Notes under the pieces: generated by a model
The model's input: the letters and a program-made list of their open reading frames with translations, nothing else
Told to the model about the DNA's origin: nothing
Database searches by the model: none
Assembly (NCBI GenBank): GCA_020832105.1
Contig: JAFIFH010000039.1
Span: forward strand, 62,001 to 126,000
Direction: 5' to 3'
Source of the DNA: Idiomarina sp.
GTDB lineage: Bacteria; Pseudomonadota; Gammaproteobacteria; Enterobacterales; Alteromonadaceae
Length of the DNA stretch: 64,000 nucleotides
In this document: piece after piece, positions 2 to 27,823 of the stretch
Layout of the letters: the number at the start of each line of letters is the position of its first letter
Position numbering within the stretch: the stretch's first letter is position 1
Program-made: the position numbers and the translations under genes

Positions 2-154
2 CACAAAGCGTATGCCGAAAATGCCTATGGCATGAAAGGCGAATGCGGCTTCAGCTTTGGTAATGGCTGTAGCGGTGGTGAAAGTAACCTGAATATCTTT
101 GGTGGCAAGAACAAAGGTGTTCGTCAGGTTATCCCAGTCACCATGAAGGAGTAA
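2..154 (+). CDS. narH: Respiratory nitrate reductase beta subunit, C-terminus (partial)
   Basis: This is the last 50 codons of a gene that begins before the window. The tail contains a CGFSFGNGCSGG segment, which resembles the C-terminal end of E. coli NarH (CGFTFGDGCHG), the iron-sulfur electron-transfer subunit of membrane nitrate reductase. The stop TAA lies 3 bases before the narJ start, so the two genes are in one operon. Identity rests on this short tail plus the following narJ and narI. Confidence 0.85.
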   Translation, partial: HKAYAENAYGMKGECGFSFGNGCSGGESNLNIFGGKNKGVRQVIPVTMKE

Positions 155-886: not shown

Positions 887-897
887 GGAGTCTGACA

Positions 898-1596: not shown

Positions 1597-1604
1597 AAGT
1601 CTGC

Positions 1605-1625
1605 GGCCGGGGTCGCCCCCCGGCC
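1605..1625 (+). other. GC-rich hairpin between narI and the parvulin gene
   Basis: An 8-bp perfect stem (GGCCGGGG at 1605-1612, CCCCGGCC at 1618-1625) with a 5-nt loop sits in the 47-bp gap after narI. It lacks a following T run, so it is more likely an mRNA stabiliser or attenuating structure than a terminator. Confidence 0.5.
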
Positions 1626-1643
1626 AAGTTTGTGGAGTCGATT

Positions 1644-2411: not shown

Positions 2412-2421
2412 AGGACAGCGC

Positions 2422-5342: not shown

Positions 5343-5392
5343 GGTGGTTCCTTCTTGGTGGCGACGAATCCGTTTTAACTAATTATTATCCA

Positions 5393-6874: not shown

Positions 6875-6913
6875 GTGACTACCTCGTCAATCGTTCATAG
6901 GCTGTATGGCGGC

Positions 6914-6956
6914 ATTATTCAACGCCTTGGGCGCAACTCTACTTGATTTAAATCAA
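6914..6956 (-). promoter_or_regulatory. FNR-type box with -10 element for the leftward narK gene
   Basis: TTGATTTAAATCAA at 6943-6956 is a perfect 14-bp palindrome matching the FNR/ANR consensus TTGAT-N4-ATCAA. On the minus strand AATAAT (6919 to 6914) matches the -10 consensus in five of six bases. Its centre is 33 bp from the box centre, the geometry of a class II FNR promoter. The predicted leader is about 35 nt. The box could also serve the rightward gene at 7192. The rest of the 317-bp gap shows no gene. Confidence 0.85.
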
Positions 6957-7191
6957 CAGCACATGTGGGGTTTTAACAGTGCTTGAACAGTGCTCGAAAA
7001 CAGCTCTACCGACGGGAGTAGGCGCCTTCCGCCTGTACAGGCGGATACTTCGGCAGGTGCTACTCATTTCGAGGTAATTCAGGTATGTGAATTTGAGCTG
7101 CTAATTATTTGGGGGTACATCCGCAGCCTGAGGTGTACGCGGGGCAATTTATCGCTAGACTGGTTCCAGTCGATCTAATCAGGAGTTGGAT

Positions 7192-8460
7192 GTGCAGCCA
7201 ACATACGGACAGGCCTGGCGCGCACTTAGCGTAGCGACCTTAGCGTTTGCAGCAAATTTTTCGGTGTGGACCATGTACGCCGTGCTGGCGATTCAGATCC
7301 AGCAGGATTTGGCGCTAAGTGGTACAGAGCTGGGTGTGATGCTGGCGGCACCAATGATTTCGGGTGCTTTACTGCGTTTTCCGGCAGGTATTTTGGCGGA
7401 ATACCTGCCCGCACGGACGCTCTGGATAGGGCTGATGATTGCGCAGATTCCGGCACTTGTTATCTTGCCTTTTATTAGTAGCTTTTGGGGCTTCTTTGCG
7501 CTGGGTTTGTGGCTGGGCATTAGCGGTGTCTCATTCACCCTTGGCGTGCGTTATGTTACGGACTGGTTCGGCCGTCGCCAACAGGGACTCGCGTTGGGTA
7601 TTTTCGGGGTGGGCAATGCTGGCGCTGCAATTTCCTTTATCTTGCTGCCGTTATTGACCAACTGGTTCAGTTGGCAGTGGGCAGGGCCAGCGTACGCAGT
7701 TGGCATGGTCATCGTGTTGTTGTTATTTATTGGTTTCGCGCCGGTAACCCCTGGTTTTATACCGGCTTATCGACCCGCCTGGAGAACTCAGCTTCACCCC
7801 CTAAAACAACTCCAGGTGTGGCGGCTTGGTCTGTATTACTTCTTCGTTTTCGGTAGTTTTCTGGCGCTGATTCTATGGCTACCCAATTACTACATGCAGG
7901 CGTATGAATTAACGCTCAACCAGGCAATGGCCTTTACCTTGTTCTTTGTGATCACTTCAAGCATGGTACGGGCGCTGGGCGGTTGGTTTGCCGACCGATA
8001 TGGCGGCAGAGCGGTGAACTGGAGCGTGTTCTGGGTTTGCCTGGTGTGCCTGTTTTTCCTTAGTTATCCACCAACCACCATGACCATTCATGGTTTACAA
8101 CAGGATGTCGTGTTGCGGATCGAGGTCAATGTCTGGTTGTTTACTGGGCTGATCTTTGTGATTGGCGTGGCTCAGGGATTCGGCCGTGCTAGTGTCTTTA
8201 AGCTTATCCACGACAAGTACCCACAACAGATGGGCAGCGTTGGTGGCTATGTGGCGACTATTGGGGCGCTCGGCGGCTGTGTTTTGCCGATTGCATTCGG
8301 GTTTATGCAGGACCTGTTAGGTATCGCCAGTGCAGCCTTTATGGTGCTTTATGCAGTTCTCGCCTGCTGTATGACAGTGATGTTTATCGCCATCAAGAGT
8401 GAGCGCTATAAGAAAGAGTTGAATGAAGCGCTGAGTAGCGATTTCTACGATGAAAGGTAG
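7192..8460 (+). CDS. NarK1-type nitrate/proton symporter-like MFS transporter
   Basis: The 422-residue, 12-helix protein resembles the short NarK1 type, thought to import nitrate with protons. It contains GVSFTLGVRYVTDWF and GIFGVGNAGAAISF, the NNP nitrate signatures, and RALGGWFADRYGG. AGGAG at 7181-7185 is six bases before GTG 7192, which is therefore the likely start; TTG 7186 would be too close and ATG 7190 is out of frame. It is followed 127 bases later by an E. coli-like NarK, giving the NarK1-NarK2 pair common in denitrifiers. Confidence 0.88.
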   Translation: MQPTYGQAWRALSVATLAFAANFSVWTMYAVLAIQIQQDLALSGTELGVMLAAPMISGALLRFPAGILAEYLPARTLWIGLMIAQIPALVILPFISSFWGFFALGLWLGISGVSFTLGVRYVTDWFGRRQQGLALGIFGVGNAGAAISFILLPLLTNWFSWQWAGPAYAVGMVIVLLLFIGFAPVTPGFIPAYRPAWRTQLHPLKQLQVWRLGLYYFFVFGSFLALILWLPNYYMQAYELTLNQAMAFTLFFVITSSMVRALGGWFADRYGGRAVNWSVFWVCLVCLFFLSYPPTTMTIHGLQQDVVLRIEVNVWLFTGLIFVIGVAQGFGRASVFKLIHDKYPQQMGSVGGYVATIGALGGCVLPIAFGFMQDLLGIASAAFMVLYAVLACCMTVMFIAIKSERYKKELNEALSSDFYDER

Positions 8461-8587
8461 TACTACCTAGCCAAGAGGAGTACTCCTGGCTATCCCTTCG
8501 GTTGAATTGTTCCCCTTTGCCTGAACCGCCATAGTAGCGGTTATATCAGCAATCTTTATGCTGGCCAATCAGGTACGGGAGCATCAG

Positions 8588-10204
8588 ATGTCAACATTGA
8601 AACGTTGGGAGCCGGAAAACGAAGAGTTCTGGCAACAGGAAGGTAAAAAAACCGCTTTTCGCAACCTGTGGATATCCATTCCTAGCCTGCTGTGTGGGTT
8701 TGCCGTATGGATGATGTGGAGTGTTATCACGGTTCAGATGATGAACCTTGGTTTTCCATATAGTGCGGGCGACCTCTTTTCACTGACCGCTATTGCAGGT
8801 TTAACGGGCGCGACGCTGCGTATCCCTTCAAGCTTTTTCGTCCGTCTTTGCGGCGGAAAATACACATTATTCCTGACCACAAGTCTTCTCATGGTACCTG
8901 CATTGGGAACAGGTCTTGCGTTGCAAAACCCGGACACCCCGCTATGGGTGTTTCAATTGATGGCATTGCTGTCAGGTATTGGTGGCGGTAACTTTGCTGC
9001 GTCGATGTCGAATATCAGCTTTTTCTTCCCCCGTAAACAGCAGGGTCTGGCACTTGGTCTGAACGCCGGCTTAGGTAATTTCGGTGTCACTACGATGCAA
9101 ATTTTGGTGCCCTTATTTATGACCTTCGCTGCATTTACCTGGATAGGTGGCGGTGGCCCAATGGAGCTGCAAAGCTCGAGTGGCACCCTGATTGGTAGTA
9201 TTCCGGCAGGCAGTGACACCTGGATTCAGAACGCGGGGTATGTCTGGTTGTTACTTCTCATACCGTTGGCATTTGCCACTTGGTTTGGTATGAACAACAT
9301 CAATACACCGGACGTAACGCCAAATTTACCGGGTGCTTTTAAATCCTTCAGTATTATTCTGGCGATGCTTGCTATTGGCTTTGTGACTTCCATTGTGGGT
9401 CTGTGGCTAATGCTGCCAGAAAGCGCCAGCGGTTCCGGATTCGGCGTGCCGAAAGAGATTGTGCTGTTACTGGTACTAGTCGGCACGGTGTTCCTGCTCA
9501 AGCTTTTACCAGGTGCCATTCGCACTAGCCTGGACCGGCAGTATAAGATCTTCAACAACAAGCACACCTGGATCATGAGTATTTTATACATCATGACTTT
9601 TGGCTCATTTATTGGCTTTGCTGCCGCGTTTCCGTTGTCGATTCAGGTCATTTTCGGTTACAGCCATGTGATGGTTGACGGCGTGATGACTCACGATATC
9701 GTCAACCCAAATGCGCCGAGCGCCTTGACCTATGCTTGGATAGCGCCATTCATCGGTGCGTTGATTCGTCCGGTCGGCGGCTGGCTATCAGACAAGCTGG
9801 GTGGCGCTCGGGTGACTCAGTTCTGTGCTATCGTGATGGTTATATGTGCCCTGGGTGCGGGTTATTACATGCGCCTGGCTTACCAATCGGAAACGCCTGA
9901 ACAGTATTTCATGCCTTTCTTCCTCATTTTCCTTGGCTTATTTGCGGCCAGTGGTATCGGGAATGGCTCGACGTTCCGCAGTATTGCGGTGGTATTCCCT
10001 CGCGAGCAGGCTGGTCCTGTGTTGGGCTGGACCTCTGCGGTGGCCGCGTACGGCGCGTTTTATATACCTCAGGTATTCGGTGAACAGATTAATGCAGCGA
10101 CACCTGAATACGCGATGATAGGCTTCGCTATCTTCTACGGGCTGTGTATTGTGCTTAACTGGTTCTACTACCTGCGCAAGTCGGCAGAATTTTATAATCC
10201 GTAA
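8588..10204 (+). CDS. NarK2-type nitrate/nitrite antiporter
   Basis: This is the E. coli NarK-like member: the start reads MSTLKRWEPENEEFWQQ, matching WRPEDPAFWQQ in NarK. The nitrate signature is GGNFAASMSNISFFFPRK followed by GLNAGLGNFGV. The protein is about 538 residues, longer than NarK (463), with an extra periplasmic/loop stretch around residues 205-225. ATG 8588 is chosen because GGGAG (8577-8581) precedes it and homology starts there, although the frame is open to ATG 8558. A strong terminator follows the gene. Confidence 0.92.
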   Translation: MSTLKRWEPENEEFWQQEGKKTAFRNLWISIPSLLCGFAVWMMWSVITVQMMNLGFPYSAGDLFSLTAIAGLTGATLRIPSSFFVRLCGGKYTLFLTTSLLMVPALGTGLALQNPDTPLWVFQLMALLSGIGGGNFAASMSNISFFFPRKQQGLALGLNAGLGNFGVTTMQILVPLFMTFAAFTWIGGGGPMELQSSSGTLIGSIPAGSDTWIQNAGYVWLLLLIPLAFATWFGMNNINTPDVTPNLPGAFKSFSIILAMLAIGFVTSIVGLWLMLPESASGSGFGVPKEIVLLLVLVGTVFLLKLLPGAIRTSLDRQYKIFNNKHTWIMSILYIMTFGSFIGFAAAFPLSIQVIFGYSHVMVDGVMTHDIVNPNAPSALTYAWIAPFIGALIRPVGGWLSDKLGGARVTQFCAIVMVICALGAGYYMRLAYQSETPEQYFMPFFLIFLGLFAASGIGNGSTFRSIAVVFPREQAGPVLGWTSAVAAYGAFYIPQVFGEQINAATPEYAMIGFAIFYGLCIVLNWFYYLRKSAEFYNP

Positions 10205-10221
10205 AAATTTTCACCACTAAA

Positions 10222-10247
10222 AACCTCGCTATTTGCGGGGTTTTTTT
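10222..10247 (+). terminator. Rho-independent terminator after the NarK2 gene
   Basis: An 8-bp stem AACCTCGC/GCGGGGTT (one G-T pair) with a TATTT loop is followed by a run of seven T (10241-10247). It lies 18 bases after the stop codon. Confidence 0.93.
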
Positions 10248-10337
10248 ATGTCTCAAATCGACCCTACCCATGACGGGGTAAAAGATCCTTTCTGAATGCG
10301 CCTTATAGCTGCTCTGAACTCGGCGGGCTCCTCAGGC

Positions 10338-10351
10338 TTGATCTGGATCAA
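10338..10351 (+). promoter_or_regulatory. FNR box upstream of nrdG-nrdD
   Basis: TTGATCTGGATCAA matches the FNR consensus in all ten fixed positions. A weak -10 (TAGGCT at 10373-10378) lies 31 bp from the box centre, as expected for direct FNR activation, which would put the transcript start near 10385. E. coli nrdDG is also FNR-activated. Confidence 0.85.
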
Positions 10352-10381
10352 TGTTTTTAGCCCCGGCTCCACTAGGCTTAA

Positions 10382-10428
10382 ACACAATATATAGTGCTTA
10401 AATTTATTAATAACACAATATGTAGGGT
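10382..10428 (+). promoter_or_regulatory. Paired NrdR boxes
   Basis: Two 16-bp sites resembling the NrdR consensus (acaCwAtATaTwGtgt) lie at 10382-10397 (ACACAATATATAGTGC) and 10413-10428 (ACACAATATGTAGGGT). Their starts are 31 bp apart, three helical turns, the known spacing for NrdR pairs. They overlap the predicted transcript start and abut the nrdG start codon, so NrdR binding should repress. Confidence 0.88.
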
Positions 10429-10430
10429 TT

Positions 10431-10883
10431 ATGCTGCGATTCAATGAAGAAACAGTTTGCTTTCAGGAAGTCCCTGGTGAGGTCTCACTGGCATATACGA
10501 TTACCGGTTGCCCGGTGGGTTGTAAAGGGTGTCACAGTGCCGATACCTGGGCACCTGGCTCGGGCGAGCCATTGACCCTGGAATACTTCCGTCGTCGTCT
10601 TAGCGATTATCAGGGCCTGATGAGCTGTGTGCTCTTCCTAGGCGGCGAGTGGCACCCTGCAGAACTGATTCAATGCCTTCGGGAAGCCAGGCAGCGCAAC
10701 CTCAATACCTGTTTGTACACCGGGCTCGATACGGTGCCCTTATCGATTAAAAAGCACCTGACCTTTCTTAAAACAGGGCCGTGGATAGCGCCACTTGGCG
10801 GGCTGGACAGCCCAACTACCAACCAGCGTTTCTACGACCTGCGCAATCAACAACTACTTAATCACCTATTTATAACGATTTAA
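10431..10883 (+). CDS. nrdG: Anaerobic ribonucleotide reductase activating protein (radical SAM)
   Basis: The 150-residue protein has the radical-SAM cysteine motif C27-x3-C31-x2-C34 in TGCPVGCKGCHSADTW, and uses S-adenosylmethionine and a 4Fe-4S cluster to install the glycyl radical on NrdD. It precedes nrdD by 11 bases, the reverse of the E. coli order. The start ATG is only two bases beyond the second NrdR box and has no well-spaced Shine-Dalgarno, so translation may be weak or initiated on a short leader. Confidence 0.9.
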   Translation: MLRFNEETVCFQEVPGEVSLAYTITGCPVGCKGCHSADTWAPGSGEPLTLEYFRRRLSDYQGLMSCVLFLGGEWHPAELIQCLREARQRNLNTCLYTGLDTVPLSIKKHLTFLKTGPWIAPLGGLDSPTTNQRFYDLRNQQLLNHLFITI

Positions 10884-10894
10884 GGATAATCATT

Positions 10895-12697
10895 ATGCTA
10901 CGCCTGACAAACGAACAAATAACCCATAAAAAGAAGTTTATTGCAGACTACCTGGCAGCACAAAATCCGGCGGACGGGTCGCAACTCGACGCCAATGCCA
11001 ATGTCACCCATAAAAATATTGCCACACTTGAAGCTGAAATCATGAAGGACTTCTTCATTCAGGTGAACCGCGCGAAAGTGAGTGACAAAATCGCTGAGCT
11101 ATTTGGCGATGACCTGGCCAAGGAGTATGTGCGTCAAATCGAAGAGCATGAAATCTACGTGCATGATGAAACCAGCCTGAAACCCTATTGTGTGTCGGTG
11201 ACAATGTACCCTTTCCTGCGTGACGGGTTGACTAAATTAGGCGGCGAGTCGCGTGCGCCGCGCCACCTGGAGTCATTTTGTGGCACGTTCGTTAACTTCG
11301 TTTTTGCAGTGAGCTCGCAGTTTGCAGGCGCTGTCGCCACGGTCGAGTTTCTCGCCTACTTTGATTACTTTGCGCGTAAGGACTATGGCCCGGATTACCT
11401 CAATACCCACCGCCGGGAGATCGAAAACCACCTGCAACACGTGGTCTATGCGCTTAATCAGCCCGCGGCTGCGCGTGGCTATCAGAGCGTATTCTGGAAT
11501 ATATCGCTGTACGATCAGCATTATTTCGACAGCATGTTTGGCGAGTTTGTATTCCCGGATTTCACTAAACCCGAATGGAACTCGGTAGACGCGTTGCAAC
11601 ACTTCTTTATGGACTGGTTTAACGCTGAACGAAGCAAAACCGTGCTGACCTTTCCGGTAGTGACGGTGGCCATGCTGACTGAGAACGGTCAGTGCAAAGA
11701 CCAGGCATTTGCCAAAGACATGGCCGGGCAACTGGCACAGGGCAACTCGTTCTTTGTCTATTTGTCTGACAATGCCGACTCACTTGCCTCCTGCTGCCGG
11801 TTGCGCAGTGAAATCAGCGATAACACATTTTCCTATACGCTCGGTGCAGGCGGAGTGGCCACTGGCTCTATCAATGTGATTACGTTAAATATGAATCGCC
11901 TGATCCAGGACGGCAGAGACCTTGACGCTGAGGTGCGTAAAATCCACAAATACCAGGTCGCTTACCGACATATGATGGAAGAGTATAAAGCCGCTGGCCT
12001 CTTAACCGTCTACGACGCAGGTTTTATCTCCCTGGACAAGCAGTTCCTCACCATCGGTATCAATGGCATGGTCGAAGCCGCAGAGTCAAAGGGCATCCAG
12101 CCGGGTAACAACGCAGAGTACAAAGCCTTTGTCAGCGATAACCTGAAAGTGATTTACGATGCGAACAAAGAAGCTAAACAGCAATATGGCTATATGTTCA
12201 ATACGGAATTTGTGCCGGCTGAGAACCTTGGGGTTAAAAATGCGCGCTGGGACCGGAAGGATGGTTACCAAGTATCGCGCGACTGCTACAACTCCTATTT
12301 TTATGTGGTAGAAGATGAGGCAACGAACGCGCTAGACAAGTTTGTTATGCACGGCAAAGAGATGATTGAATACCTCGACGGAGGTTCAGCGCTGCACCTT
12401 AATCTGGACGAAAAATTGGATCAGCAGGGCTACCTCTCGTTGCTGAATGTTGCGGCACGAACCGGGTGTAATTATTTTTGTATCAATGTGAAGATCACCA
12501 TCTGTAACGCGTGTGAACATATCGACAAGCGCACCCTACATAGCTGTTCTGCCTGTGGGTCTGAAAATGTCGACCATGGTACCCGGGTCATCGGTTACCT
12601 GAAACGAGTATCGGCGTTTAGCGAGGGGCGCAGGAAAGAGCACGCCTTGCGCCATTACCACCGGGAAACCGCCACCACGAAGCAAGAAGTAGCCTGA
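10895..12697 (+). CDS. nrdD: Anaerobic ribonucleoside-triphosphate reductase without ATP-cone
   Basis: NrdD reduces NTPs to dNTPs without oxygen. The 600-residue chain has NANVTHKNIATLEAE near the N-terminus, KPYCVS (Cys99), SCCRLRSE (Cys300), a zinc site CNAC...CSAC and the glycyl-radical segment TRVIGYL with the radical Gly at 567. E. coli NrdD has 712 residues; here the N-terminal ATP-cone with its VxKRDG motif is absent. Ribosome site AAGGA lies upstream of ATG 10895. The gene is co-transcribed with nrdG and ends at a terminator. Confidence 0.95.
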   Translation: MLRLTNEQITHKKKFIADYLAAQNPADGSQLDANANVTHKNIATLEAEIMKDFFIQVNRAKVSDKIAELFGDDLAKEYVRQIEEHEIYVHDETSLKPYCVSVTMYPFLRDGLTKLGGESRAPRHLESFCGTFVNFVFAVSSQFAGAVATVEFLAYFDYFARKDYGPDYLNTHRREIENHLQHVVYALNQPAAARGYQSVFWNISLYDQHYFDSMFGEFVFPDFTKPEWNSVDALQHFFMDWFNAERSKTVLTFPVVTVAMLTENGQCKDQAFAKDMAGQLAQGNSFFVYLSDNADSLASCCRLRSEISDNTFSYTLGAGGVATGSINVITLNMNRLIQDGRDLDAEVRKIHKYQVAYRHMMEEYKAAGLLTVYDAGFISLDKQFLTIGINGMVEAAESKGIQPGNNAEYKAFVSDNLKVIYDANKEAKQQYGYMFNTEFVPAENLGVKNARWDRKDGYQVSRDCYNSYFYVVEDEATNALDKFVMHGKEMIEYLDGGSALHLNLDEKLDQQGYLSLLNVAARTGCNYFCINVKITICNACEHIDKRTLHSCSACGSENVDHGTRVIGYLKRVSAFSEGRRKEHALRHYHRETATTKQEVA

Positions 12698-12716
12698 AGA
12701 AGTAGCTATATAACCA

Positions 12717-12744
12717 CAAAGAGGGAGTGTAACTCCCTCTTTTG
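12717..12744. terminator. Terminator after nrdD
   Basis: A long perfect stem, AAAGAGGGAGT paired with ACTCCCTCTTT around a 3-nt GTA loop, ends in TTTTG. The A run on the other side would let it work on both strands. Confidence 0.85.
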
Positions 12745-12804
12745 CTTCGCCGGGGTAGCAAAGAGCTTTGTTAAACTGGTGACTCATTTCGTCAGGAGTT
12801 CACC

Positions 12805-13209
12805 ATGCATATTAGTACCTATAGCGACCTTATCGCACTGGCTCAGCAACAGCCCGATCCGCAGCGACTGTTATTTGTTTTCGCCAAAGCCGAAATGCCA
12901 CCTGAACCCACTAAAGATCAGCAAAAGCGCTTCGAATCAGGCGAGGGCGGGTATCTGATACCGGTGACTTGTGTCGATAAACTTGCTGACGAGGTGACAG
13001 AATTTGAATCTCTGGTGGCAGAGTCAAAACACACCGGGGTCGAGTGGGACATGGTCTTTGTTGCAGGTATGTCAGGCATGGGAGGTATGCCACCAACCCC
13101 TGACCAGGCTGAGCAACCGCTTAAAATGATGGTGGAGCAGATTAAAGCTGGCACCATCGCAAATTTCGTGACCTTCGATAAAAGTGGTGACGCTGTTTCT
13201 ATTGTGTAG
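12805..13209 (+). CDS. Conserved protein often found near anaerobic RNR genes (function unknown)
   Basis: The 134-residue soluble protein begins MHISTYSDLIALAQQQPDPQRLLFVFAKAE and contains a Met/Gly-rich stretch VAGMSGMGGMPP near residues 91-101. Similar proteins in gammaproteobacteria carry the label ribonucleotide reductase subunit alpha, which seems unsupported since no RNR domain is visible. ATG 12805 is preceded by CAGGAG. It converges on ubiT, with an 11-base overlap of the coding ends. Confidence 0.75.
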   Translation: MHISTYSDLIALAQQQPDPQRLLFVFAKAEMPPEPTKDQQKRFESGEGGYLIPVTCVDKLADEVTEFESLVAESKHTGVEWDMVFVAGMSGMGGMPPTPDQAEQPLKMMVEQIKAGTIANFVTFDKSGDAVSIV

Positions 13210-13699
13210 GCATCTGTTGCTCAACGATATCGGCCATCTCAGAGGTCATTTTGTTTAAGTATGGCGGTAGCCGTGTACTGAGCTCGATGGTATCGAGCAA
13301 ATTTTTGAGCTCAAGTCCGAATTCAGTGTCGCCGGTGATCATTAGCCGCCGTCGGAAGAATAAGGTGTCAGGGTCGACACGCTGGGTGCTGAGCAGAAAC
13401 AGGTCATTGAAGTGGCCACGAAAAGACACATCGTGGTCACCGGTGTCAGGGCGTACCTGCAGCCTGCGCCCACTTAAATGGGTAATGAACGAATACTCGA
13501 GGTCCTGGATCTCAATACGTAGTTTTTTGTCGCCAATGAAGGTTAGTTTTTGTTGGTTCAGTTCGTCCTTAAAAAACTGATTCAGGGCAAGTTCCAATAC
13601 TCTGGTACTAACTACTTGTGGGGTCAGGCGTAGCGCCATTTTTACCCCTATTGGAGCGTTCCGTACCACTTTGTCGGTAATCCAATTTTTACTTATCAT
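13199..13699 (-). CDS. ubiT: UbiT, SCP2-domain accessory factor for anaerobic ubiquinone synthesis
   Basis: The 166-residue protein has a sterol-carrier SCP2-type lipid-binding domain with FIGDKKLRIEIQD and SRRLMITGDTEFGLELKNLLD, the pattern of E. coli YhbT/UbiT. UbiT is needed for oxygen-independent ubiquinone synthesis and probably binds the quinone intermediates. A GGAAG ribosome site (13707-13711) precedes ATG 13699. It is divergent from ubiU, sharing a 71-bp promoter region, which is the usual arrangement. Confidence 0.9.
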   Translation of the reverse strand: MISKNWITDKVVRNAPIGVKMALRLTPQVVSTRVLELALNQFFKDELNQQKLTFIGDKKLRIEIQDLEYSFITHLSGRRLQVRPDTGDHDVSFRGHFNDLFLLSTQRVDPDTLFFRRRLMITGDTEFGLELKNLLDTIELSTRLPPYLNKMTSEMADIVEQQMPTQ

Positions 13700-13726
13700 T
13701 CAAGTACTTCCGTTGGTTTAGTGCGA

Positions 13727-13732
13727 TATAAT
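13727..13732 (+). promoter_or_regulatory. TATAAT -10 element for ubiU-ubiV-mog-nnrS
   Basis: A consensus TATAAT sits 39 bp before the ubiU start. The -35 position (GTACTT) is poor, which suggests an activator. A weak FNR-like half site (TTCAA at 13699-13703) is centred near the class II position, but the full box is only about 6 of 10. Confidence 0.55.
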
Positions 13733-13770
13733 CAGGCTAACTTAAAAGCGCTTCCGGAGCGAGATATTTT

Positions 13771-14763
13771 ATGGAATTACTGTGCCCAGCGGGAAGTGCC
13801 CCGGCATTGAAAGCCGCCATCGAAAATGGTGCGGACGCTGTCTATATCGGCATGAAAGATCAGACCAATGCGCGCCACTTTGCTGGTCTTAATTTTGATG
13901 CTAACTCATTAAAAGACGCGGCTGATTACGTGCACAAGCACGGACGTAAAATTCACGTGGCTATTAATACCTTTGCTCACCCGAATAGCTGGGAGGCCTG
14001 GCAGCGAGCGGTAGATACAGCTGTCCGCGCCGGCGTGGATGTACTTATCGTGGCGGACATGGCGGTACTTGCTTATGTGGCAGAACGTTATCCGAAAATA
14101 GAGCGCCATTTGTCGGTACAGGCGTCTGCTACCAATGCCGCGGCCATTAACTTCTATCAGCAGTTTGGTGTGCACCGGATTGTGTTACCTCGCGTGTTGT
14201 CTATGCAACAGGTTCGTGCGTTGGCACGCACCTGTGATGTGGATCTGGAAGTATTTGCCTTTGGTAGCCTGTGCATCATGGCTGAGGGTCGTTGTTATCT
14301 GAGCTCATACCTCACCGGCGAATCGCCCAATACCGCAGGGGCCTGTTCGCCGGCTGCCTACGTGCGCTGGGAGGAGAAAGGTAATCAGCTCGAATCGCGT
14401 CTTAACGATGTGGTGATAGACCGCTTTGCTGAGAATGAAACCGCTGGTTATCCGACCTTGTGTAAAGGCCGCTTTCAAGTGGACGACCAGCTTTATCACC
14501 CGTTGGAGGAGCCCACTAGCCTGAATACGCTCGACCTGCTGCCGCAATTACACAAAGAAGGCATTCGCTCACTGAAGATTGAGGGGCGCCAACGAAGTCC
14601 GGCCTATGTGGCGAAGATCACTAAAGTCTGGCGTCAAGCTATCGATCGGGTGCTAGCCGACCCTGAACGTTTTACCGTAGAAGAAAACTGGCAGCAGGTG
14701 TTAAGTCAGTTGTCAGAAGGCAGTCAAACGACATTGGGCGCCTACCACCGAAGCTGGAAATGA
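13771..14763 (+). CDS. ubiU: UbiU, oxygen-independent ubiquinone hydroxylation protein (U32 family)
   Basis: The 330-residue protein starts MELLCPAGSAPALKAAIENGADAVYIG, the peptidase U32 signature. Four cysteines for a 4Fe-4S cluster are visible in SLCIMAEGRC, GACSPAAY and PTLCKGRF. In E. coli UbiU pairs with UbiV to hydroxylate the quinone ring without oxygen, using prephenate as donor. It is 10 bases from ubiV. Its partners UbiT and UbiV are both present. Confidence 0.95.
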   Translation: MELLCPAGSAPALKAAIENGADAVYIGMKDQTNARHFAGLNFDANSLKDAADYVHKHGRKIHVAINTFAHPNSWEAWQRAVDTAVRAGVDVLIVADMAVLAYVAERYPKIERHLSVQASATNAAAINFYQQFGVHRIVLPRVLSMQQVRALARTCDVDLEVFAFGSLCIMAEGRCYLSSYLTGESPNTAGACSPAAYVRWEEKGNQLESRLNDVVIDRFAENETAGYPTLCKGRFQVDDQLYHPLEEPTSLNTLDLLPQLHKEGIRSLKIEGRQRSPAYVAKITKVWRQAIDRVLADPERFTVEENWQQVLSQLSEGSQTTLGAYHRSWK

Positions 14764-14773
14764 GGAACGACGT

Positions 14774-15664
14774 ATGAAATTCTCAATCGGACCGATTCAG
14801 TATTTCTGGCCACGTGCGCAGGTGCTGGATTTTTATAACGAGGTTGCCCAGTCGGACGCTGATATTGCTTATTTGGGCGAAACCGTATGTAGCAAACGGC
14901 GTGAACTTAAGTTTGCTGATTATATGAACCTCGCGCATATGCTGCGCGAAAGCGGTAAGCAGGTCTTGTTGTCGACCATGACTTTGCTTGAGGCACCTTC
15001 AGAGCTGCGCGAGCTGCGCCGTTATTGTGAGAACGGCGACTTTCAGATAGAAGCGAACGATTTCGGCGCCGTTGGAATTTTACAAGAGGCCGGCTTACCT
15101 TTTACCGGCGGTGCTGCGCTCAATTGCTATAACCAGCATACCCTACGGCGTTTAGTGGGGATGGGCATGAACCGTTGGGTAGTGCCCGTAGAGCTGTCCG
15201 AGCAATGGTTACGCGACATCCTCCAACAAAGCGTAATTCAGGACATTCGCAGTTGTTTTGAAACAGAGGTGTTCGCGTTTGGGCATATGCCTTTGGCATG
15301 GTCAGGGCGCTGTTTTACCGCGCGCTCTGAGAATCGTGACAAGGACAAATGCGAACTGTGCTGTATTAAGTACCCGCAAGGGCGGGAAGTGAAAAGCCAG
15401 GACGGTCAGCAGGTATTTGTGCTCAATGGTATCCAGACCCAGTCAGGGGACCGCTATAACCTGATCAATCAACTGCCGCAAATGGACGGCATAGTTGACA
15501 TCGCACGGCTGAGCCCTCAGCCGAAGGGAACCTTTGAATGGTTACACAAATTTCAGAGCAATGTTGCCGGGAAGCAGCCGGTTGCTCTGCAGCACGGTGA
15601 TTGTAACGGCTACTGGCTAAACCTCGCGGGTATGCAAAGACAACCACTAGGAGATATTTTATGA
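14774..15664 (+). CDS. ubiV: UbiV, partner of UbiU (U32 family)
   Basis: The 296-residue U32-family protein begins MKFSIGPIQYFWPRAQVLDFY. It has the cluster cysteines in ETVCSKRRE (Cys39), SGRCFTAR and DKCELCC. It forms the UbiU-UbiV heterodimer. The stop overlaps the mog start as ATGA, so translation of the next gene is coupled. Confidence 0.95.
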   Translation: MKFSIGPIQYFWPRAQVLDFYNEVAQSDADIAYLGETVCSKRRELKFADYMNLAHMLRESGKQVLLSTMTLLEAPSELRELRRYCENGDFQIEANDFGAVGILQEAGLPFTGGAALNCYNQHTLRRLVGMGMNRWVVPVELSEQWLRDILQQSVIQDIRSCFETEVFAFGHMPLAWSGRCFTARSENRDKDKCELCCIKYPQGREVKSQDGQQVFVLNGIQTQSGDRYNLINQLPQMDGIVDIARLSPQPKGTFEWLHKFQSNVAGKQPVALQHGDCNGYWLNLAGMQRQPLGDIL

Positions 15665-16191
15665 CAGCAAAAATTGGCATCGTGACGGTCAGTGACCGCG
15701 CCAGCGCAGGCGTGTATGAAGATATTTCAGGACCTGCGATTATCGACAGCCTGAATGACTACTTGAGCTCAGCGTGGCAGGCGGTCACGCGGGTCATCGC
15801 CGATGAGCAGGACCTGATTGAGCAAACATTGCGGGAACTGGTTGATCAGGAAAAATGCGCCCTTGTGGTGACCACTGGCGGCACTGGGCCGGCTAAGCGA
15901 GACGTAACCCCGGAAGCGACTGAAGCGGTTTGCGACCGGATGATGCCCGGGTTTGGCGAACTGATGCGAACTGAGTCACTCAAGTACGTGCCTACCGCGA
16001 TTTTGTCACGGCAAACTGCGGGCTTACGTGGGCAGTCACTGATTATTAATTTACCAGGTAAGCCTAAAGCCATCCGTCAATGCCTGGATGCGGTGTTTCC
16101 GGCAGTGCCTTACTGCCTGGACTTGATGGACGGGCCCTACCTTGAGTGCAACGAAGACGTAATCAAGCCCTTCCGACCCAAAGCGAAATAA
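15661..16191 (+). CDS. mog: Molybdopterin adenylyltransferase (Mog)
   Basis: Mog adenylates molybdopterin before molybdate insertion. The 176-residue chain starts TAKIGIVTVSDRASAGVYED and has TTGGTGPAKRDVTPEAT, GFGELMR, TAILSRQ and NLPGKPKAIRQCL, all very close to E. coli Mog rather than MoaB. It supplies cofactor for NarG, which fits the surrounding nitrate genes. ATGA overlap with ubiV makes it part of that operon. Confidence 0.93.
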   Translation: MTAKIGIVTVSDRASAGVYEDISGPAIIDSLNDYLSSAWQAVTRVIADEQDLIEQTLRELVDQEKCALVVTTGGTGPAKRDVTPEATEAVCDRMMPGFGELMRTESLKYVPTAILSRQTAGLRGQSLIINLPGKPKAIRQCLDAVFPAVPYCLDLMDGPYLECNEDVIKPFRPKAK

Positions 16192-16208
16192 CCACAGCAG
16201 GCAAAAAC

Positions 16209-17414
16209 ATGCAGCAGATGACCGACATGAAAAAAGAGCAGGCGATGACGCCGATACTCCGCCAGGCCTTTCGCCCGATGTTTTTATTTGGGGCCGTATT
16301 TAGCATCATTGCGATGGCGTTGTGGGGGCTCGCCCTGGCAGGGGTTATAAGGCTTAATCCCTATGCCAATATTATGTTTTGGCATCAGCATGAGATGTTG
16401 TTTGGGTTCGTCGCGGCGATCATTGTGGGTTTTTTGCTAACGGCGGTGCAGAACTGGACGGGGCGCCGGGCGACCCATGGTAAAACGTTGCTGGTGCTGA
16501 GCCTTGTGTGGCTGGCCGGGCGACTGTTGATGTTATTTGGAGGCGGGTTACCCGCCTGGCTGGTGGTTGCTGTAGATCTTCTGTTTTTACCCCTCGCCGC
16601 GGTGTTATTTGCGAGAATTGTGGTGATGGCGGGTAATAACCGAAACCTGTTTTTTGTGCCTGTGTTGGTTTTGCTCACGCTGGCGAATGTGGTTATGCAT
16701 GCGGGAGTTCAGCTCGGTCAGTTTGCCTGGATTCAGTATGGTAGCCATAGCGCTGTGCTGGTTATTACCCTGATTATGGCGATTGTCTCCGGTCGGGTGT
16801 TGCCAATGTTTACTGCCAACGGCACACAGACCCCAAAAGTGGCGCCGCTCCTCTGGCTCGACCGAACAGCGCTGGGTAGCTTGTGGTTATTGGTGGTGCT
16901 ACATCTATTCTTGCTCACTGGCTACTTACCAGGCTGGTTTATGGCCGCACTTTTTGGCTTAAGTGCGGTGGCCACGGCATGGCGTTTATTACGAGTTAAA
17001 TTCTGGATTACCGGGCGCGTCCCGTTGTTATGGTCACTGCATGCCGCGGTGGCTTTCATTCCCCTGGGGCTCGCCTTGTTTGCACTGCGTTATGCTGGCT
17101 TCGCAATCAGTCAAAGCGCTGCTGTGCATTCGCTGACTGCTGGCGCTATGGGCGTGATGATCCTCTCGATGATGGCGCGGGTGTCACTTGGTCATACCGG
17201 GCGCATGCTGAAGCCGAAAACGATTATGTCAGTAGCGTTCGTATTAATTATTGGTGCTGCGCTGATTCGTGTGTTGGCTGGGTGGGCAATTCCCGGGGCA
17301 ACCATGGGCTGGTATTTATATGCTACAGCGGGTTGGGTTATTGCATACTCACTTTACGTTATTGTTTACACACCTATTTTGGTTAAACCCCGTGAAGACG
17401 GCCGGCCAGGATGA
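16209..17414 (+). CDS. nnrS: NnrS-family membrane protein (nitric oxide stress)
   Basis: This 12-helix inner-membrane protein begins with MTPILRQAFRPMFLFGAVFS and FWHQHEMLFGFVAAIIVGF, hallmark NnrS segments with histidines proposed to bind heme. NnrS proteins protect against nitric oxide stress. The ATG at 16209 follows AGCAGG by seven bases; in-frame ATGs at 16218 and 16227 are alternatives. It is 17 bases after mog and probably the last gene of the ubiU operon, linking quinone, molybdenum cofactor and NO defence. Confidence 0.92.
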   Translation: MQQMTDMKKEQAMTPILRQAFRPMFLFGAVFSIIAMALWGLALAGVIRLNPYANIMFWHQHEMLFGFVAAIIVGFLLTAVQNWTGRRATHGKTLLVLSLVWLAGRLLMLFGGGLPAWLVVAVDLLFLPLAAVLFARIVVMAGNNRNLFFVPVLVLLTLANVVMHAGVQLGQFAWIQYGSHSAVLVITLIMAIVSGRVLPMFTANGTQTPKVAPLLWLDRTALGSLWLLVVLHLFLLTGYLPGWFMAALFGLSAVATAWRLLRVKFWITGRVPLLWSLHAAVAFIPLGLALFALRYAGFAISQSAAVHSLTAGAMGVMILSMMARVSLGHTGRMLKPKTIMSVAFVLIIGAALIRVLAGWAIPGATMGWYLYATAGWVIAYSLYVIVYTPILVKPREDGRPG

Positions 17415-18674: not shown

Positions 18675-19049
18675 TTATTGAGTTGGCTCAGGACGCCGCC
18701 ATAGCCAAATAGCGACACAAATGAGAAATAAAGGCAGTGCGATTTTGAGCATAGCAGGCGCGTTAGAAACGAATAGCATTAACGCGCTAGCCACCATCAT
18801 CAGGGTCGCAATGTACTTAGCTTTACGTGGCACCGCACGGCTATGTCGCCAGGCTAAAATGGAGGGGCCATAGGTTGGGTGTTGCACCAGTTTTGCTTCC
18901 AGCGATGGCCAGCCACGGGAACCTGCCCAGGCTGCGACTAATACGAAAGGCACAGTGGGTAGGCCCGGCAAGGGGACACCGATGGCAGCTAACGCCAGTG
19001 CGAATACCGCAAGGGCTCGCCAGCAGAGAACCCGTAAGGTATGTAACAT
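18675..19049 (-). CDS. ybaN: YbaN-like DUF454 inner-membrane protein
   Basis: The 124-residue protein has the DUF454 pattern: a first helix ending in IGVPLPGLPTVPF, the segment AGSRGWPSLEAKLVQHPTYGPSILAWR, a basic loop SRAVPRKAKY and two more helices. Function is unknown. Its ATG overlaps the norR stop as TAATG, so it is translated with norR. Confidence 0.85.
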   Translation of the reverse strand: MLHTLRVLCWRALAVFALALAAIGVPLPGLPTVPFVLVAAWAGSRGWPSLEAKLVQHPTYGPSILAWRHSRAVPRKAKYIATLMMVASALMLFVSNAPAMLKIALPLFLICVAIWLWRRPEPTQ

Positions 19050-20581
19050 TAGCTGACTCCTTTAAGGCCAAGCTTGCGTGCTAGTTTGTGCAGGTTGCTG
19101 GGGTCGACTTCAAGCTCGCGAGCGCTCGGTGCCCATCGTTGCTCATTGCGCTGCAGTGCTGCGCTAATAGCCGCGCGCTGAGCTTCAGTGACTGCCTGTC
19201 GCAGGCTTACAGGCGAGTGCTGGCTGGTTGTGACAGTGCGCGGTCTTACGTCGTCGGTTTCCGACGCAATATCGTTGAGCATGTCCCGGGTAATGGTGAC
19301 AATGCCGCCACATTGCTGTTGCAAGCTAAGGGCTTTGACGGCGACCCGGCTGATCACATGTTCCAGCTCACGCACGTTGCCTGGCCATGAGTAGTTCAGT
19401 AGAACCGCTTCCGCTTCGCTATCCAGCCTTAAATTACGGAAACCAAGTCGGGCACGGTTCTGTTCGAGAAAGTATCCGGCAAGATGAAGAACATCGGTGT
19501 CCCGCTCGCGTAGCGGTGGCACCACCACTGGGTAGACCGATAAACGATGATAAAGATCGGCGCGAAACAACTCGTCTTTAACCAGTGATTTCAGATTACG
19601 GTTGGTGGCAGCAATTACGCGCACATCAACCTGCTTGGTATGGTCTGCGCCGACCCGTTGAATGTCACCGGACTGCAGTACCCGCAACAGCTTGGCCTGA
19701 ATGCTTAGGGGCAGTTCACCGACTTCATCCAGAAACAGCGTGCCCTGGTGAGCGGCTTCGAAGCGTCCGCCTCTTGCTGACGTTGCACCTGAAAACGCCC
19801 CTTTCACATGGCCAAAAAGTTCGCTTTCAACCAAAGACTCAGGCAGTGCTGCGCAGTTAATGTATATCATAGGACGTGCGCTGCGATTTGAATTCTGGTG
19901 CAGCCTGCGTGCAATCAGTTCTTTGCCGGTGCCGGTTTCCCCTTGCAGTAGTACGGGTAAATCCGAGCGCGCAACGACGTCGATTTCTGCCAGCAAACTA
20001 CTCAGCTTTTCACTGCGACCAATGATATCCGCATGCCCCTGCGCTGGGGCCGGACCTGAATAAGTTTCCCGGCTCACTGTGCGCAGGGCGCGAACTTCCC
20101 GTTCCAGCCGGTTGGTGCGTAGAATCGCTTCCAATAGGAAGCTGTAGCGTTGCAGATCTCTTAAGCATGGTTCGTTAAAGGTGCCCGCAGCCTGCGCGTC
20201 GAGCGTGACTACGCCCCAGCATTGGCCGTCAATATAGAGTGCCATGCCCAGACAGTCGTGTACGGCTAAAGAACCTGTGGTGTGTTCGTCCAGTAGCCCG
20301 TCATAAGGGTCGGGAAGATCGCTATCCGGCGGGAACAGGTGTGGCTGGCGCGCTTTAAGCAACATCGCGAGCCGCGGGTGCTCGGCAATTTTAAAGCGCC
20401 GCCCATTCGCTTCAGTCACCAGGCCATGGCTTGCAACAGGCACCAGGTAATCGCCGTCCAGCTTAAGCAAGACTACCGCGGTACAGGCAAACTGAGTACG
20501 TAGGCAACTGACTGCATGTTGCAGGCGTAAACCAGTGTTCACCTCTGTGGTGAGGTCGGCGATGAGCGTCTGTTCAAGCAT
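19049..20581 (-). CDS. norR: NorR, nitric-oxide-responsive sigma-54 activator
   Basis: The 510-residue regulator has an N-terminal GAF sensor (about 1-165) that in E. coli holds a ferrous iron bound by NO, with conserved DPYDG and VHDC. The AAA+ domain (about 185-420) has GETGTGKE (214-221), GAFSGA (261-266) and LFLDEVGE (282-289). A C-terminal Fis-type helix-turn-helix follows. ATG 20581 is chosen by homology. The first NorR-like site starts one base upstream of the start codon, so autoregulation is likely. GAFSGA replaces the usual GAFTGA. Confidence 0.93.
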   Translation of the reverse strand: MLEQTLIADLTTEVNTGLRLQHAVSCLRTQFACTAVVLLKLDGDYLVPVASHGLVTEANGRRFKIAEHPRLAMLLKARQPHLFPPDSDLPDPYDGLLDEHTTGSLAVHDCLGMALYIDGQCWGVVTLDAQAAGTFNEPCLRDLQRYSFLLEAILRTNRLEREVRALRTVSRETYSGPAPAQGHADIIGRSEKLSSLLAEIDVVARSDLPVLLQGETGTGKELIARRLHQNSNRSARPMIYINCAALPESLVESELFGHVKGAFSGATSARGGRFEAAHQGTLFLDEVGELPLSIQAKLLRVLQSGDIQRVGADHTKQVDVRVIAATNRNLKSLVKDELFRADLYHRLSVYPVVVPPLRERDTDVLHLAGYFLEQNRARLGFRNLRLDSEAEAVLLNYSWPGNVRELEHVISRVAVKALSLQQQCGGIVTITRDMLNDIASETDDVRPRTVTTSQHSPVSLRQAVTEAQRAAISAALQRNEQRWAPSARELEVDPSNLHKLARKLGLKGVS

Positions 20582-20636
20582 GGTGAAAATAACCCGCGTG
20601 GTGAATTTAACCCGTAAATGCAGGGTATAAATTACC
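20582..20636. promoter_or_regulatory. Three NorR-type enhancer sites (GGT-N7-ACC)
   Basis: The sites lie at 20582-20594, 20600-20612 and 20624-20636, each GGT and ACC separated by seven mostly A/T bases. E. coli NorR binds three sites with a GT-N7-AC core upstream of norVW. Centres are 18 and 24 bp apart. They sit between norR and a sigma-54 promoter pointing to ric. Confidence 0.88.
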
Positions 20637-20677
20637 AGAGCTGGCAAAAAACCTATATAAATCAGAGGGGGTAGTTT

Positions 20678-20693
20678 TGGCGCGAAAGTTGCT
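20678..20693 (+). promoter_or_regulatory. Sigma-54 promoter of ric
   Basis: TGGCGCGAAAGTTGCT has the invariant -24 GG and -12 GC separated by ten bases and matches the consensus TGGCAC-N5-TTGC except for one base. It lies 60 bp before the ric start and about 40-100 bp after the NorR-like sites. Confidence 0.9.
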
Positions 20694-20753
20694 CTTTAGT
20701 AGGTAGTTTGCGGACATTACGCAGCACCTGAACTCTAAATGAGGTAAATAACT

Positions 20754-21437
20754 ATGCAGTTTCTTGAACAATCCCTTGGTCGTATCGCCACTGAAGTTGC
20801 TGGCGCCACAGCAGTATTCCATCAGTATGGCCTGGATTTTTGTTGCGGCGGTGAACGCTCTCTACAGGACGCACTGGCCAGAAAATCGTTACCAGCAGAC
20901 CCGGTGATAGCCCAGCTCACTAACTTACTCGCCAACGAGGGTGAACATGCAGACTGGCGCAACGCCTCTAACCAGGAGCTGATAGATCATATATTGGTGC
21001 GCTACCACGAGCGTCACCGCCAACAACTCACCGAACTGATTCGTTTAGCCCGCCGCGTAGAGCATGTCCATGGTGACAGCCCTGAATGTCCGCTGGGGTT
21101 GGCGGAGCACCTGTTTGAGACTTTCCATGAACTGGAAAGCCATATGGCCAAGGAAGAGCAAATACTGTTCCCGATGCTGGCTGGCGATACTTATCCGGAC
21201 GGGCCTATCATGGTGATGGAAGAAGAGCACGTGCAGCATGGTGACGCCCTGGCTAAAATTGACGAACTGACCAATGGTATTCAGCTCCCGCAGGGCGCAT
21301 GCAATACCTGGACAGCACTTTACATAGGGTTAGCCGAATTTAAGCGTGACGTGATGGATCACATTCATCTGGAGAATCAGATCCTGTTTAAACCCCGCGA
21401 AGTACATGACGGACAGTGTTGTGGTGGATGCCAGTAA
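20754..21437 (+). CDS. ytfE: RIC/YtfE-type iron-sulfur cluster repair di-iron protein
   Basis: The 227-residue protein has the ScdA N-terminal domain with YGLDFCCGG and a hemerythrin-like domain with metal-ligand histidines in YHERHRQQL, FHELESHMAKEEQILFP, EEEHVQHG and DHIHLENQILF. It repairs iron-sulfur clusters damaged by NO. The C-terminus adds CCGGC, an unusual cysteine cluster. It is preceded by NorR-type sites and a sigma-54 promoter, so it should be NO-induced. Confidence 0.92.
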   Translation: MQFLEQSLGRIATEVAGATAVFHQYGLDFCCGGERSLQDALARKSLPADPVIAQLTNLLANEGEHADWRNASNQELIDHILVRYHERHRQQLTELIRLARRVEHVHGDSPECPLGLAEHLFETFHELESHMAKEEQILFPMLAGDTYPDGPIMVMEEEHVQHGDALAKIDELTNGIQLPQGACNTWTALYIGLAEFKRDVMDHIHLENQILFKPREVHDGQCCGGCQ

Positions 21438-24957: not shown

Positions 24958-24972
24958 GCAAGGGCGGTGCCA
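24958..24972 (-). promoter_or_regulatory. Sigma-54 promoter of glnK-amtB
   Basis: On the minus strand TGGCACCGCCCTTGC is a perfect TGGCAC-N5-TTGC. It ends 38 bp before the glnK start. Confidence 0.93.
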
Positions 24973-26776: not shown

Positions 26777-27823
26777 CTACTTGTGTTCATGTTGCCGCTC
26801 ATGCTCAATGAGCCAGCGCTTGCGCTCAAGCCCGCCGCCATAACCGCCCAACTGACCGTTGGTATTAATTACCCGGTGGCACGGAATAATAATCGCCAAT
26901 TGGTTTTTACCATTGGCGTTGGCAACGGCGCGAAAAGCAGTGCGACGACCAATATTGTCGGCTAATGTCAGGTACGCGGTAGTTTGGCCGACGGGGATCT
27001 GTCGCAATGCCGCCCATACTGTCTTTTCAAATTCGCTGCCCACTAAGTGGCAGGGGGTATTGAAAGTCAGCGAGCTGCCGACAAAATACGCCTCAAGCTC
27101 ACTCTCAATCTGATTGGTAATCAATGTCTTGCCGGGGACAACCGCGGCCTTTAAGCGTAGCCGCAATCGTTCAATTTCTCGCTCTAATGCCCTGCGGTCA
27201 GCAAACTCAAGTAAATAAAGATACTCATGGTCAGCGATGGCAAGCATGGGCCCAAGGGGGGTATCAAGCCAGCTTGCAAATAAAGTCATTGCGGGCTGTT
27301 TTGAAGGGGGCGTACCCAAAGTACGAAAGAATGCGTCACGAAATCCACTGGCAGATTCATAGCCTGCATTCAACTGCGCATCTATGACCGGCTGTCCCGC
27401 TCGTATTTGTTGCGTGGCAAGTCCAATTCGTCGTGCTCGGGCATATTCTACAAAGGTCATCCCTAAGCGCTTTTTAAACTGACGCCGGGCTGTTGACTCA
27501 TCTACGCCGAGTGCCTTGAAGTCACTGTCGCGCCAGCGCTTATCCGGGTTTTCCTCGACCGCTTCAATAAGCCGCTTAATCACGTCGGACGTCTGATTTG
27601 GTGGTGACAAGGGTTTACAACGCTTGCAAGGCCGATATGACGCTATCAACGCCTCTTTTGCAGTCAGGAAAAACTCACAGTGGTCAAACTTAGGCTTACG
27701 AGCTGGGCAGGTGGCATGGCAAAAAATGCCGGTGGTGGTAATGCCAACGAAGAACACGCCGCTATAGCTGGCGTCGCGCGATAACAGAGCCTGGTAGTAG
27801 CGTTGTTTGGTGTCGGTATTCAT
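26777..27823 (-). CDS. ada: Ada, methylphosphotriester/O6-methylguanine-DNA methyltransferase and activator
   Basis: The 348-residue protein has the Ada zinc site with C35, C39, C66 and C69 (GIFCHATC, YRPCKRC), an AraC-type DNA-binding region (about 85-180) and the O6-alkylguanine transferase domain with acceptor Cys315 in IPCHRV. It repairs alkylated DNA and, once methylated, activates transcription. All catalytic residues are in place and the length matches E. coli Ada (354). Confidence 0.96.
   Translation of the reverse strand: MNTDTKQRYYQALLSRDASYSGVFFVGITTTGIFCHATCPARKPKFDHCEFFLTAKEALIASYRPCKRCKPLSPPNQTSDVIKRLIEAVEENPDKRWRDSDFKALGVDESTARRQFKKRLGMTFVEYARARRIGLATQQIRAGQPVIDAQLNAGYESASGFRDAFFRTLGTPPSKQPAMTLFASWLDTPLGPMLAIADHEYLYLLEFADRRALEREIERLRLRLKAAVVPGKTLITNQIESELEAYFVGSSLTFNTPCHLVGSEFEKTVWAALRQIPVGQTTAYLTLADNIGRRTAFRAVANANGKNQLAIIIPCHRVINTNGQLGGYGGGLERKRWLIEHERQHEHK

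What the first reader, a model, noticed from the sequence alone, without database searches (positions are those of the whole stretch)
20582..20693. NorR-type triple enhancer and sigma-54 promoter control ric, with norR itself at the far end
Three GGT-N7-ACC sites at 20582, 20600 and 20624, plus TGGCGCGAAAGTTGCT with correct -24/-12 spacing, lie between norR and the RIC/YtfE gene. In E. coli NorR drives norVW; here it appears to drive repair of NO-damaged clusters. The first site starts one base upstream of the norR start codon, which predicts autoregulation.
Basis: partly seen in the sequence, partly recalled or inferred. Interest (0 to 1): 0.7.

Follow-up and report, generated by a model that had tools for sequence, protein, structure and literature searches.

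The report
Nitric-oxide switch for a repair gene
A nitric-oxide sensing regulator sits back to back with a gene thought to repair nitric-oxide damage, and the DNA between them carries the three binding sites and promoter it would use to switch that gene on; the arrangement is already known from other bacteria.

Summary
GGT-N7-ACC sites at 20582, 20600 and 20624 and a sigma-54 promoter at 20678-20693 lie between norR (start codon 20581, minus) and ric (20754, plus). No shuffle of the 172-base gap gave three sites (0 of 20,000); the exact trio occurs once in the genome. NorR and YtfE/RIC pass NCBIfam cut-offs; rpoN is present.

The reading "NorR switches on ric" is well supported by comparison but not new. 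It is the Cupriavidus necator norR-norA layout. A review says NorR upregulates that ric/norA; Ralstonia solanacearum NorR controls norA alone. E. coli is the wrong yardstick.

What I add: of 134 distinct NorR loci, 28 carry GGT-N7-ACC chains, 64 GTC-N5-GAC chains and 42 fit neither rule. The GGT users fall in one clade with helix SNLHKL, 25 of 28 beside ric. Site 3 to promoter is 52-56 bases in 25 of 29 loci; four genus-mates with a shortened RIC are the exceptions.

Autoregulation is plausible but untested. Verdict: ordinary new member of a known kind.

The parts
19049..20581 (-). norR: NO-responsive sigma-54 activator (GAF, AAA+, Fis-type HTH)
   Evidence: NF003451 NorR 678 bits, cut-off 476; Pfam GAF and Sigma54_activat; residues at the positions of E. 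coli R75, D99, H111, C113, D131 invariant in 11 NorRs; GAFSGA loop
20582..20594 (.). NorR site 1, GGTGAAAATAACC, next to the norR start codon
   Evidence: conserved position
20600..20612 (.). NorR site 2, GGTGAATTTAACC
   Evidence: 18 bases after site 1
20624..20636 (.). NorR site 3, GGTATAAATTACC
   Evidence: 24 bases after site 2; 54 bases before the sigma-54 element
20660..20665 (+). AATCAG, candidate degenerate IHF half-site 18 bases before TGG
   Evidence: WATCAR 17-18 bases before TGG in 14 of 29 loci, window included; the full IHF consensus is absent in the window and present in 10 of 25 loci
20678..20693 (+). sigma-54 promoter TGGCGCGAAAGTTGCT (-24 GG, -12 GC)
   Evidence: same place in 25 of 29 loci
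20741..20744 (+). GAGG, likely ribosome-binding site of ric
   Evidence: read from the sequence
20754..21437 (+). ric/ytfE/norA: di-iron repair-of-iron-centres protein, ScdA_N plus hemerythrin domain, 227 aa
   Evidence: NF008221 YtfE 295 bits, cut-off 254; TIGR03652 239 bits, cut-off 204.7; PF04405 and PF01814

Best explanation
A NO-inducible, sigma-54-dependent promoter for ric. NorR dimers sit on three GGT-N7-ACC sites beside norR and build an AAA+ oligomer there. Without NO the GAF domain holds the ATPase off. NO binding to the GAF iron releases it; the NorR complex, perhaps brought round by an IHF-type bend, opens the sigma-54 polymerase parked at 20678-20693, and ric is made to restore NO-damaged iron centres. 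Shown here: genes, sites, promoter, spacing, conservation, presence of rpoN. Inferred from homologues: NO sensing, activation, RIC function. Inferred only: IHF bending, and repression of norR by NorR bound over its leader or promoter. In this genome ric is the only NorR target I can point to.
For: Sites and promoter; significance; protein families; conserved GAF residues and AAA+ loop; rpoN at 517 bits over a 277 cut-off. Same layout in C. necator pHG1, spacing 19/26/52 against 18/24/54 here. Site 3 to sigma-54 element 52-56 bases in 25 of 29 loci. Published: R. eutropha ric/norA upregulated by NorR (PMC9268430, passages); R. solanacearum norA falls 15-fold in a norR mutant (PMC9045102, passages); three enhancer sites essential for E. 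coli norVW (PMC2941729, passages). Similar neighbourhood in the genus and NorR grouped with genus-mates at 93/95, just under the program's mark for a firm branch. No NorB or NorV match and only a reductase-part match for Hmp in the genome.
Against: No expression, binding or NO data for this organism. No norR promoter was found, so autoregulation rests on position. The IHF match in the window is partial (no hit with 0-2 mismatches at that place). The genome is 92.8% complete, so absence of other NO genes is not proof; the NorB search has a positive control, the NorV search none. Targets with degenerate sites elsewhere in the genome would have been missed by the exact patterns. In four genus-mates the enhancer-promoter step is 67-114 bases, so the step is not fixed even among close relatives.
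Confidence: 0.9

Rival explanations
1. ric is governed mainly by an NsrR repressor or an FNR/DNR-type activator, as in E. coli or P. stutzeri, and the NorR sites are minor.
For: NsrR represses ric in several species and DnrD activates it in P. stutzeri (PMC9268430 passages).
Against: In 20561-20760 no NsrR-like match better than 4 mismatches and no FNR/DNR-like match with up to 3 mismatches. The NorR trio and sigma-54 element are conserved. I did not search the genome for nsrR or dnr genes.
Confidence: 0.05
2. The three sites serve norR autorepression only; ric is expressed from another promoter.
For: Site 1 touches the norR start codon, and lies 0-5 bases from the inferred start in 25 of 28 loci.
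Against: Distance to the sigma-54 element is 52-56 bases in 25 of 29 loci, which autorepression alone would not preserve. Three sites upstream of a sigma-54 promoter is the activating layout of E. coli.
Confidence: 0.04
3. Chance clustering of a short degenerate motif.
For: Single GGT-N7-ACC sites are common (21 in the window).
Against: 0 of 20,000 shuffles; exact trio once in the genome; conserved at near-fixed spacing in relatives.
Confidence: 0.01

Closest known systems
Cupriavidus necator (Ralstonia eutropha) H16 norR-norA-norB on pHG1
   Same: Divergent norR and ytfE/norA, three GGT-N7-ACC sites, sigma-54 element; spacings 19/26/52 against 18/24/54; NorR 54.7% and RIC 55% identical
   Different: There a nitric-oxide reductase gene follows norA; here ric stands alone and no norB was found in the genome
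Ralstonia solanacearum norA-norR (PMC9045102, passages seen)
   Same: NorR controls norA and no other protein-coding gene
   Different: Read only in print; sequence not compared here
E. coli norR-norVW
   Same: NorR, three tandem sites, sigma-54 promoter, divergent target
   Different: Target is flavorubredoxin; sites are GTC-N5-GAC; recognition helix VANLHRL, not PSNLHKL; E. coli ytfE is under NsrR
Pseudomonas stutzeri dnrN, predicted NorR target (PMC1274295, passages and the NorR section seen)
   Same: Tandem NorR sites and sigma-54 promoter predicted before dnrN
   Different: norR was not found in that unfinished genome

Membership tests
NorR regulator | GAF, sigma-54 AAA+ and HTH domains; score over the family cut-off | tested here: met
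   678 bits against 476 over nearly the whole model; Pfam GAF and Sigma54_activat; HTH by alignment with E. coli NorR
NorR regulator | GAF iron-ligand residues (E. coli R75, D99, H111, C113, D131; R75 seen, the rest recalled) | tested here: met
   window R70, D94, H108, C110, D128 invariant in 11 sequences
NorR regulator | NO activates its ATPase | not testable with these tools
   needs protein or reporter work
NorR-dependent sigma-54 promoter | three tandem GT-N7-AC sites upstream of a -24/-12 element | tested here: met
NorR-dependent sigma-54 promoter | RpoN present | tested here: met
   TIGR02395 517 bits, cut-off 277
NorR-dependent sigma-54 promoter | IHF site between enhancer and promoter | tested here: inconclusive
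   half-site at the conserved place; full consensus in 10 of 25 loci, not here
RIC/YtfE/NorA | ScdA_N plus di-iron hemerythrin domain; score over the family cut-off | tested here: met
   NF008221 and TIGR03652 over cut-off; PF04405, PF01814
C. necator-type norR-norA module | divergent norR/norA with GGT-N7-ACC trio; NorR in the same clade | tested here: met
NorR autoregulation | NorR bound at the sites lowers norR expression | not testable with these tools
   position is suggestive only; no promoter found

The most novel reading that the evidence does not exclude
NorR has split into operator-code clades. One clade (helix SNLHKL) reads GGT-N7-ACC and is largely dedicated to ric; others read GTC-N5-GAC and drive norVW, hmp or nnrS. 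The code follows the regulator even where the target has changed (norB in L137; hmp in L138 and L141). Paralogous NO sensors could therefore be insulated in one cell, and recognition-helix residues (S495, K499) may set the code. Against it: 42 of 134 loci fit neither rule, among them the second, norV-side NorR of the L138 genome (L218), and the GGT class is a single clade, so clade and code cannot be told apart.
Probability: 0.45. Interest if true: 0.4.

Novelty: new member of a known kind. Interest (0 to 1): 0.25.

Why it matters
It places this bacterium's iron-centre repair under likely direct NO control in a genome where I found no NO reductase of the NorB or NorV type and no full Hmp (genome 92.8% complete), a one-target setting like that reported for R. 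solanacearum. The comparison shows that E. coli NorR is a poor stand-in: its operator letters and helix differ. The two-code pattern can be tested directly and would sharpen genome-wide prediction of NorR targets.

Tried and rejected
Looked for NsrR, FNR/DNR and sigma-70 signals in the gap: none convincing. A second NorR target: the exact triple occurs once. One site plus a sigma-54 element gives 14 places against 4 in the reversed control; two of the 14 are this promoter, and I did not study the other 12. Horizontal replacement of norR: a quick tree, which warned of long branches, put the window NorR first in its clade; a careful tree puts it with its genus-mates at 93/95, just under the mark for a firm branch, and the neighbourhood is similar, so I do not favour it. 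HTH residues as proven cause of operator choice: not claimed, because the GGT class is one clade (one change on the tree) and columns outside the HTH separate the classes equally well. The 'x' class (42 of 134) is what my two simple motif rules missed, not a third class. In the IHF count the sigma-54 element of L138 was misplaced (348 bases away) and L132, L136 and L141 had none by the strict rule; one search corrects the distances, but the IHF count was not rerun. Structure prediction was not used: the families are clear from sequence.

Full report
What is there. norR (19049-20581, minus) and ric (20754-21437, plus) diverge from a 172-base gap. It holds three perfect GGT-N7-ACC sites (20582, 20600, 20624) and TGGCGCGAAAGTTGCT at 20678-20693. 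The first site begins on the base next to the norR start codon. An in-frame TTG upstream would lengthen norR to 532 aa, but similarity to other NorRs begins at the ATG at 20581, so I keep that start.

Is it more than chance? Single sites are common (21 in the window, 11.5 expected). Three in this gap never arose in 20,000 dinucleotide shuffles (two arose in 24), and a sigma-54-like element arose in 16 of 20,000. In the 3.03-Mb genome the exact triple (gaps 0-30) occurs once, here; reversed control 0.

The proteins. norR scores 678 bits against the NCBIfam NorR cut-off of 476. ric scores 295 bits against 254 (YtfE) and 239 against 204.7 (RIC). Residues at the E. coli NorR iron-ligand positions R75, D99, H111, C113 and D131 are invariant in an alignment of 11 NorRs; R75 is named in a passage of PMC2941729, the others are recalled. 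The AAA+ loop reads GAFSGA. rpoN is present (517 bits, cut-off 277). A NorR protein search of the own genome gives nine matches, norR included, the other eight over its AAA+ region.

The precedent. The nearest annotated plasmid relative of the NorR is that of C. necator H16 pHG1 (54.7%), where norR diverges from ytfE (norA), followed by a nitric-oxide reductase gene. The gap there carries the same trio (19/26) and a sigma-54 element 52 bases after site 3; in the window the figures are 18/24 and 54. A review states that R. eutropha ric (norA) is upregulated by NorR (PMC9268430, passages). In R. solanacearum norA expression fell 15-fold in a norR mutant, and norA is reported as the only protein-coding gene of the NorR regulon (PMC9045102, passages). 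Rodionov et al. predicted NorR sites before dnrN in P. stutzeri (PMC1274295, passages and the NorR section). So the wiring is known; the window is a new member.

Regulon in this genome. C. necator NorB found nothing in the own genome; the same query found its own gene and a distant homologue in another plasmid (2 of 2 records). E. coli NorV found nothing (no positive control). E. coli Hmp gave three weak matches (25-27%) that begin at residue 184 or later, so not its globin part. The genome is 92.8% complete. ric is the only target I can point to. I did not search for nitrite reductases, nsrR or dnr.

Survey of NorR loci. From the relatives, order and class searches, stretches fetched, four plasmid loci, E. 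coli and the genome-contig scan I collected 154 NorR places, 134 distinct after identical copies were dropped (hits over 400 aa and 380 bits). Of the 124 matches listed, mostly the lowest-scoring, were not fetched. By simple rules (a chain of at least two sites 15-30 bases apart), 28 loci carry GGT-N7-ACC chains, 64 carry GTC-N5-GAC chains and 42 fit neither. The 28 lie before ric (25), norB (1) and hmp (2). The 64 lie before norV (27), hmp (26), nnrS (5) or a gene I did not identify (6). Among the 42 are 18 with no identified gene, 15 hmp, 5 norV, 2 nnrS, 1 norB and 1 ric. All 28 have S495 and K499 (window numbering; helix SNLHKL); all 64 have R at 499. With the DNA-binding domain left out, the 28 plus one unclassified ric locus (L127) form one clade (SH-aLRT 100, quick method), and the operator type changes once on the tree when unclassified rows are not counted. 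Being one clade, this does not show which residues cause the operator choice. Rodionov et al. already reported that NorR1 and NorR2 of Vibrio differ at operator positions in a way that would let them tell their targets apart. In the listings of searches (capped at 10-15 rows) I saw no paper on the GGT/GTC split, but two papers on NorR operators that I tried, of 2004 and 2010, are not held.

Geometry. In 29 loci (the 28 plus L127, whose sites 2 and 3 I placed by eye) the step from site 3 to the sigma-54 element is 52-56 bases in 25, and 67, 99, 113 and 114 in four (there I let the base after the -12 G vary, which four loci need: L132, L136, L138, L141). A full IHF consensus lies between enhancer and promoter in 10 of 25 loci, 0.29 expected from shuffles (one of the 25, L138, was scanned over a wrong stretch). 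Relatives share ancestry, so these are not independent. In the window only the half-site AATCAG is there, 18 bases before TGG; 14 of 29 loci have WATCAR 17-18 bases before TGG. A review figure legend places IHF bending in the E. coli norVW model (PMC4601167, passages).

Within the genus. nnrS, DGC-domain, moeB, DUF454, norR and ric lie together in the four genus-mates that have norR and in another genus (G032), with hemN beyond ric in two of the mates (L224, L225) and the DGC gene moved beyond ric in the two others (L223, L226). Of 17 genomes of the genus, own included, five have a NorR over the cut-off. The careful NorR tree groups the window with its four genus-mates at 93/95. Those four are the loci with the stretched enhancer-promoter distance, and their RIC lacks the ScdA_N domain. 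A fifth short RIC (L227/L127, genome G409, another genus) keeps the 54-base step, so the two changes are not tied together.

Autoregulation. Site 1 begins 0-5 bases from the inferred norR start in 25 of 28 loci (starts inferred by alignment). Any norR promoter must then overlap the sites or lie beyond them, so bound NorR would be in its way. E. coli NorR is described as regulating both norR and norVW (PMC8249747, passages). No norR promoter was found here, so this stays a prediction.

Verdict. Observation confirmed, reading supported, precedent corrected; an ordinary member of the C. necator-type NorR-RIC module.

Noticed in passing
window 24958-24972 (minus): Perfect sigma-54 element TGGCACCGCCCTTGC just upstream of two genes that look like glnK-amtB (24919-23397; named by eye, not searched), probably an NtrC-type promoter.
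   Followed up: no
L018, L019, L020, L021 (and L227): NorR-linked RIC genes that have lost the ScdA_N domain but keep the hemerythrin domain and a CCGGCQ tail; in the four genus-mates (L018-L021) the enhancer-promoter distance is 67-114 bases instead of about 54.
   Followed up: partly
L218, L219, L220: Two norR genes about 2 kb apart in genomes G327, G391 and G282: a GGT-type one before hmp (seen for G327 and G282) and another before norVW (seen for G327), whose operator my rules did not find.
   Followed up: partly
L137: A GGT-N7-ACC trio and sigma-54 element before a norB homologue instead of ric, with a ric-clade NorR.
   Followed up: no
window 158-17414: Nitrate-respiration and anaerobiosis cluster: narJ, narI, three narK-like genes, nrdG/nrdD, ubiV, mog and nnrS upstream of the norR-ric pair; no NorR trio before nnrS.
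   Followed up: partly
window 3612-5342 (minus): 576-aa protein with PP2C-phosphatase and Ser/Thr-kinase matches in one chain (below the curated cut-offs), next to a narK gene.
   Followed up: no
window 77-89 and 26861-26873: Single GGT-N7-ACC sites with AT-rich cores (GGTGAAAGTAACC before narJ; GGTATTAATTACC inside an ORF that looks ada-like by eye), probably chance.
   Followed up: no
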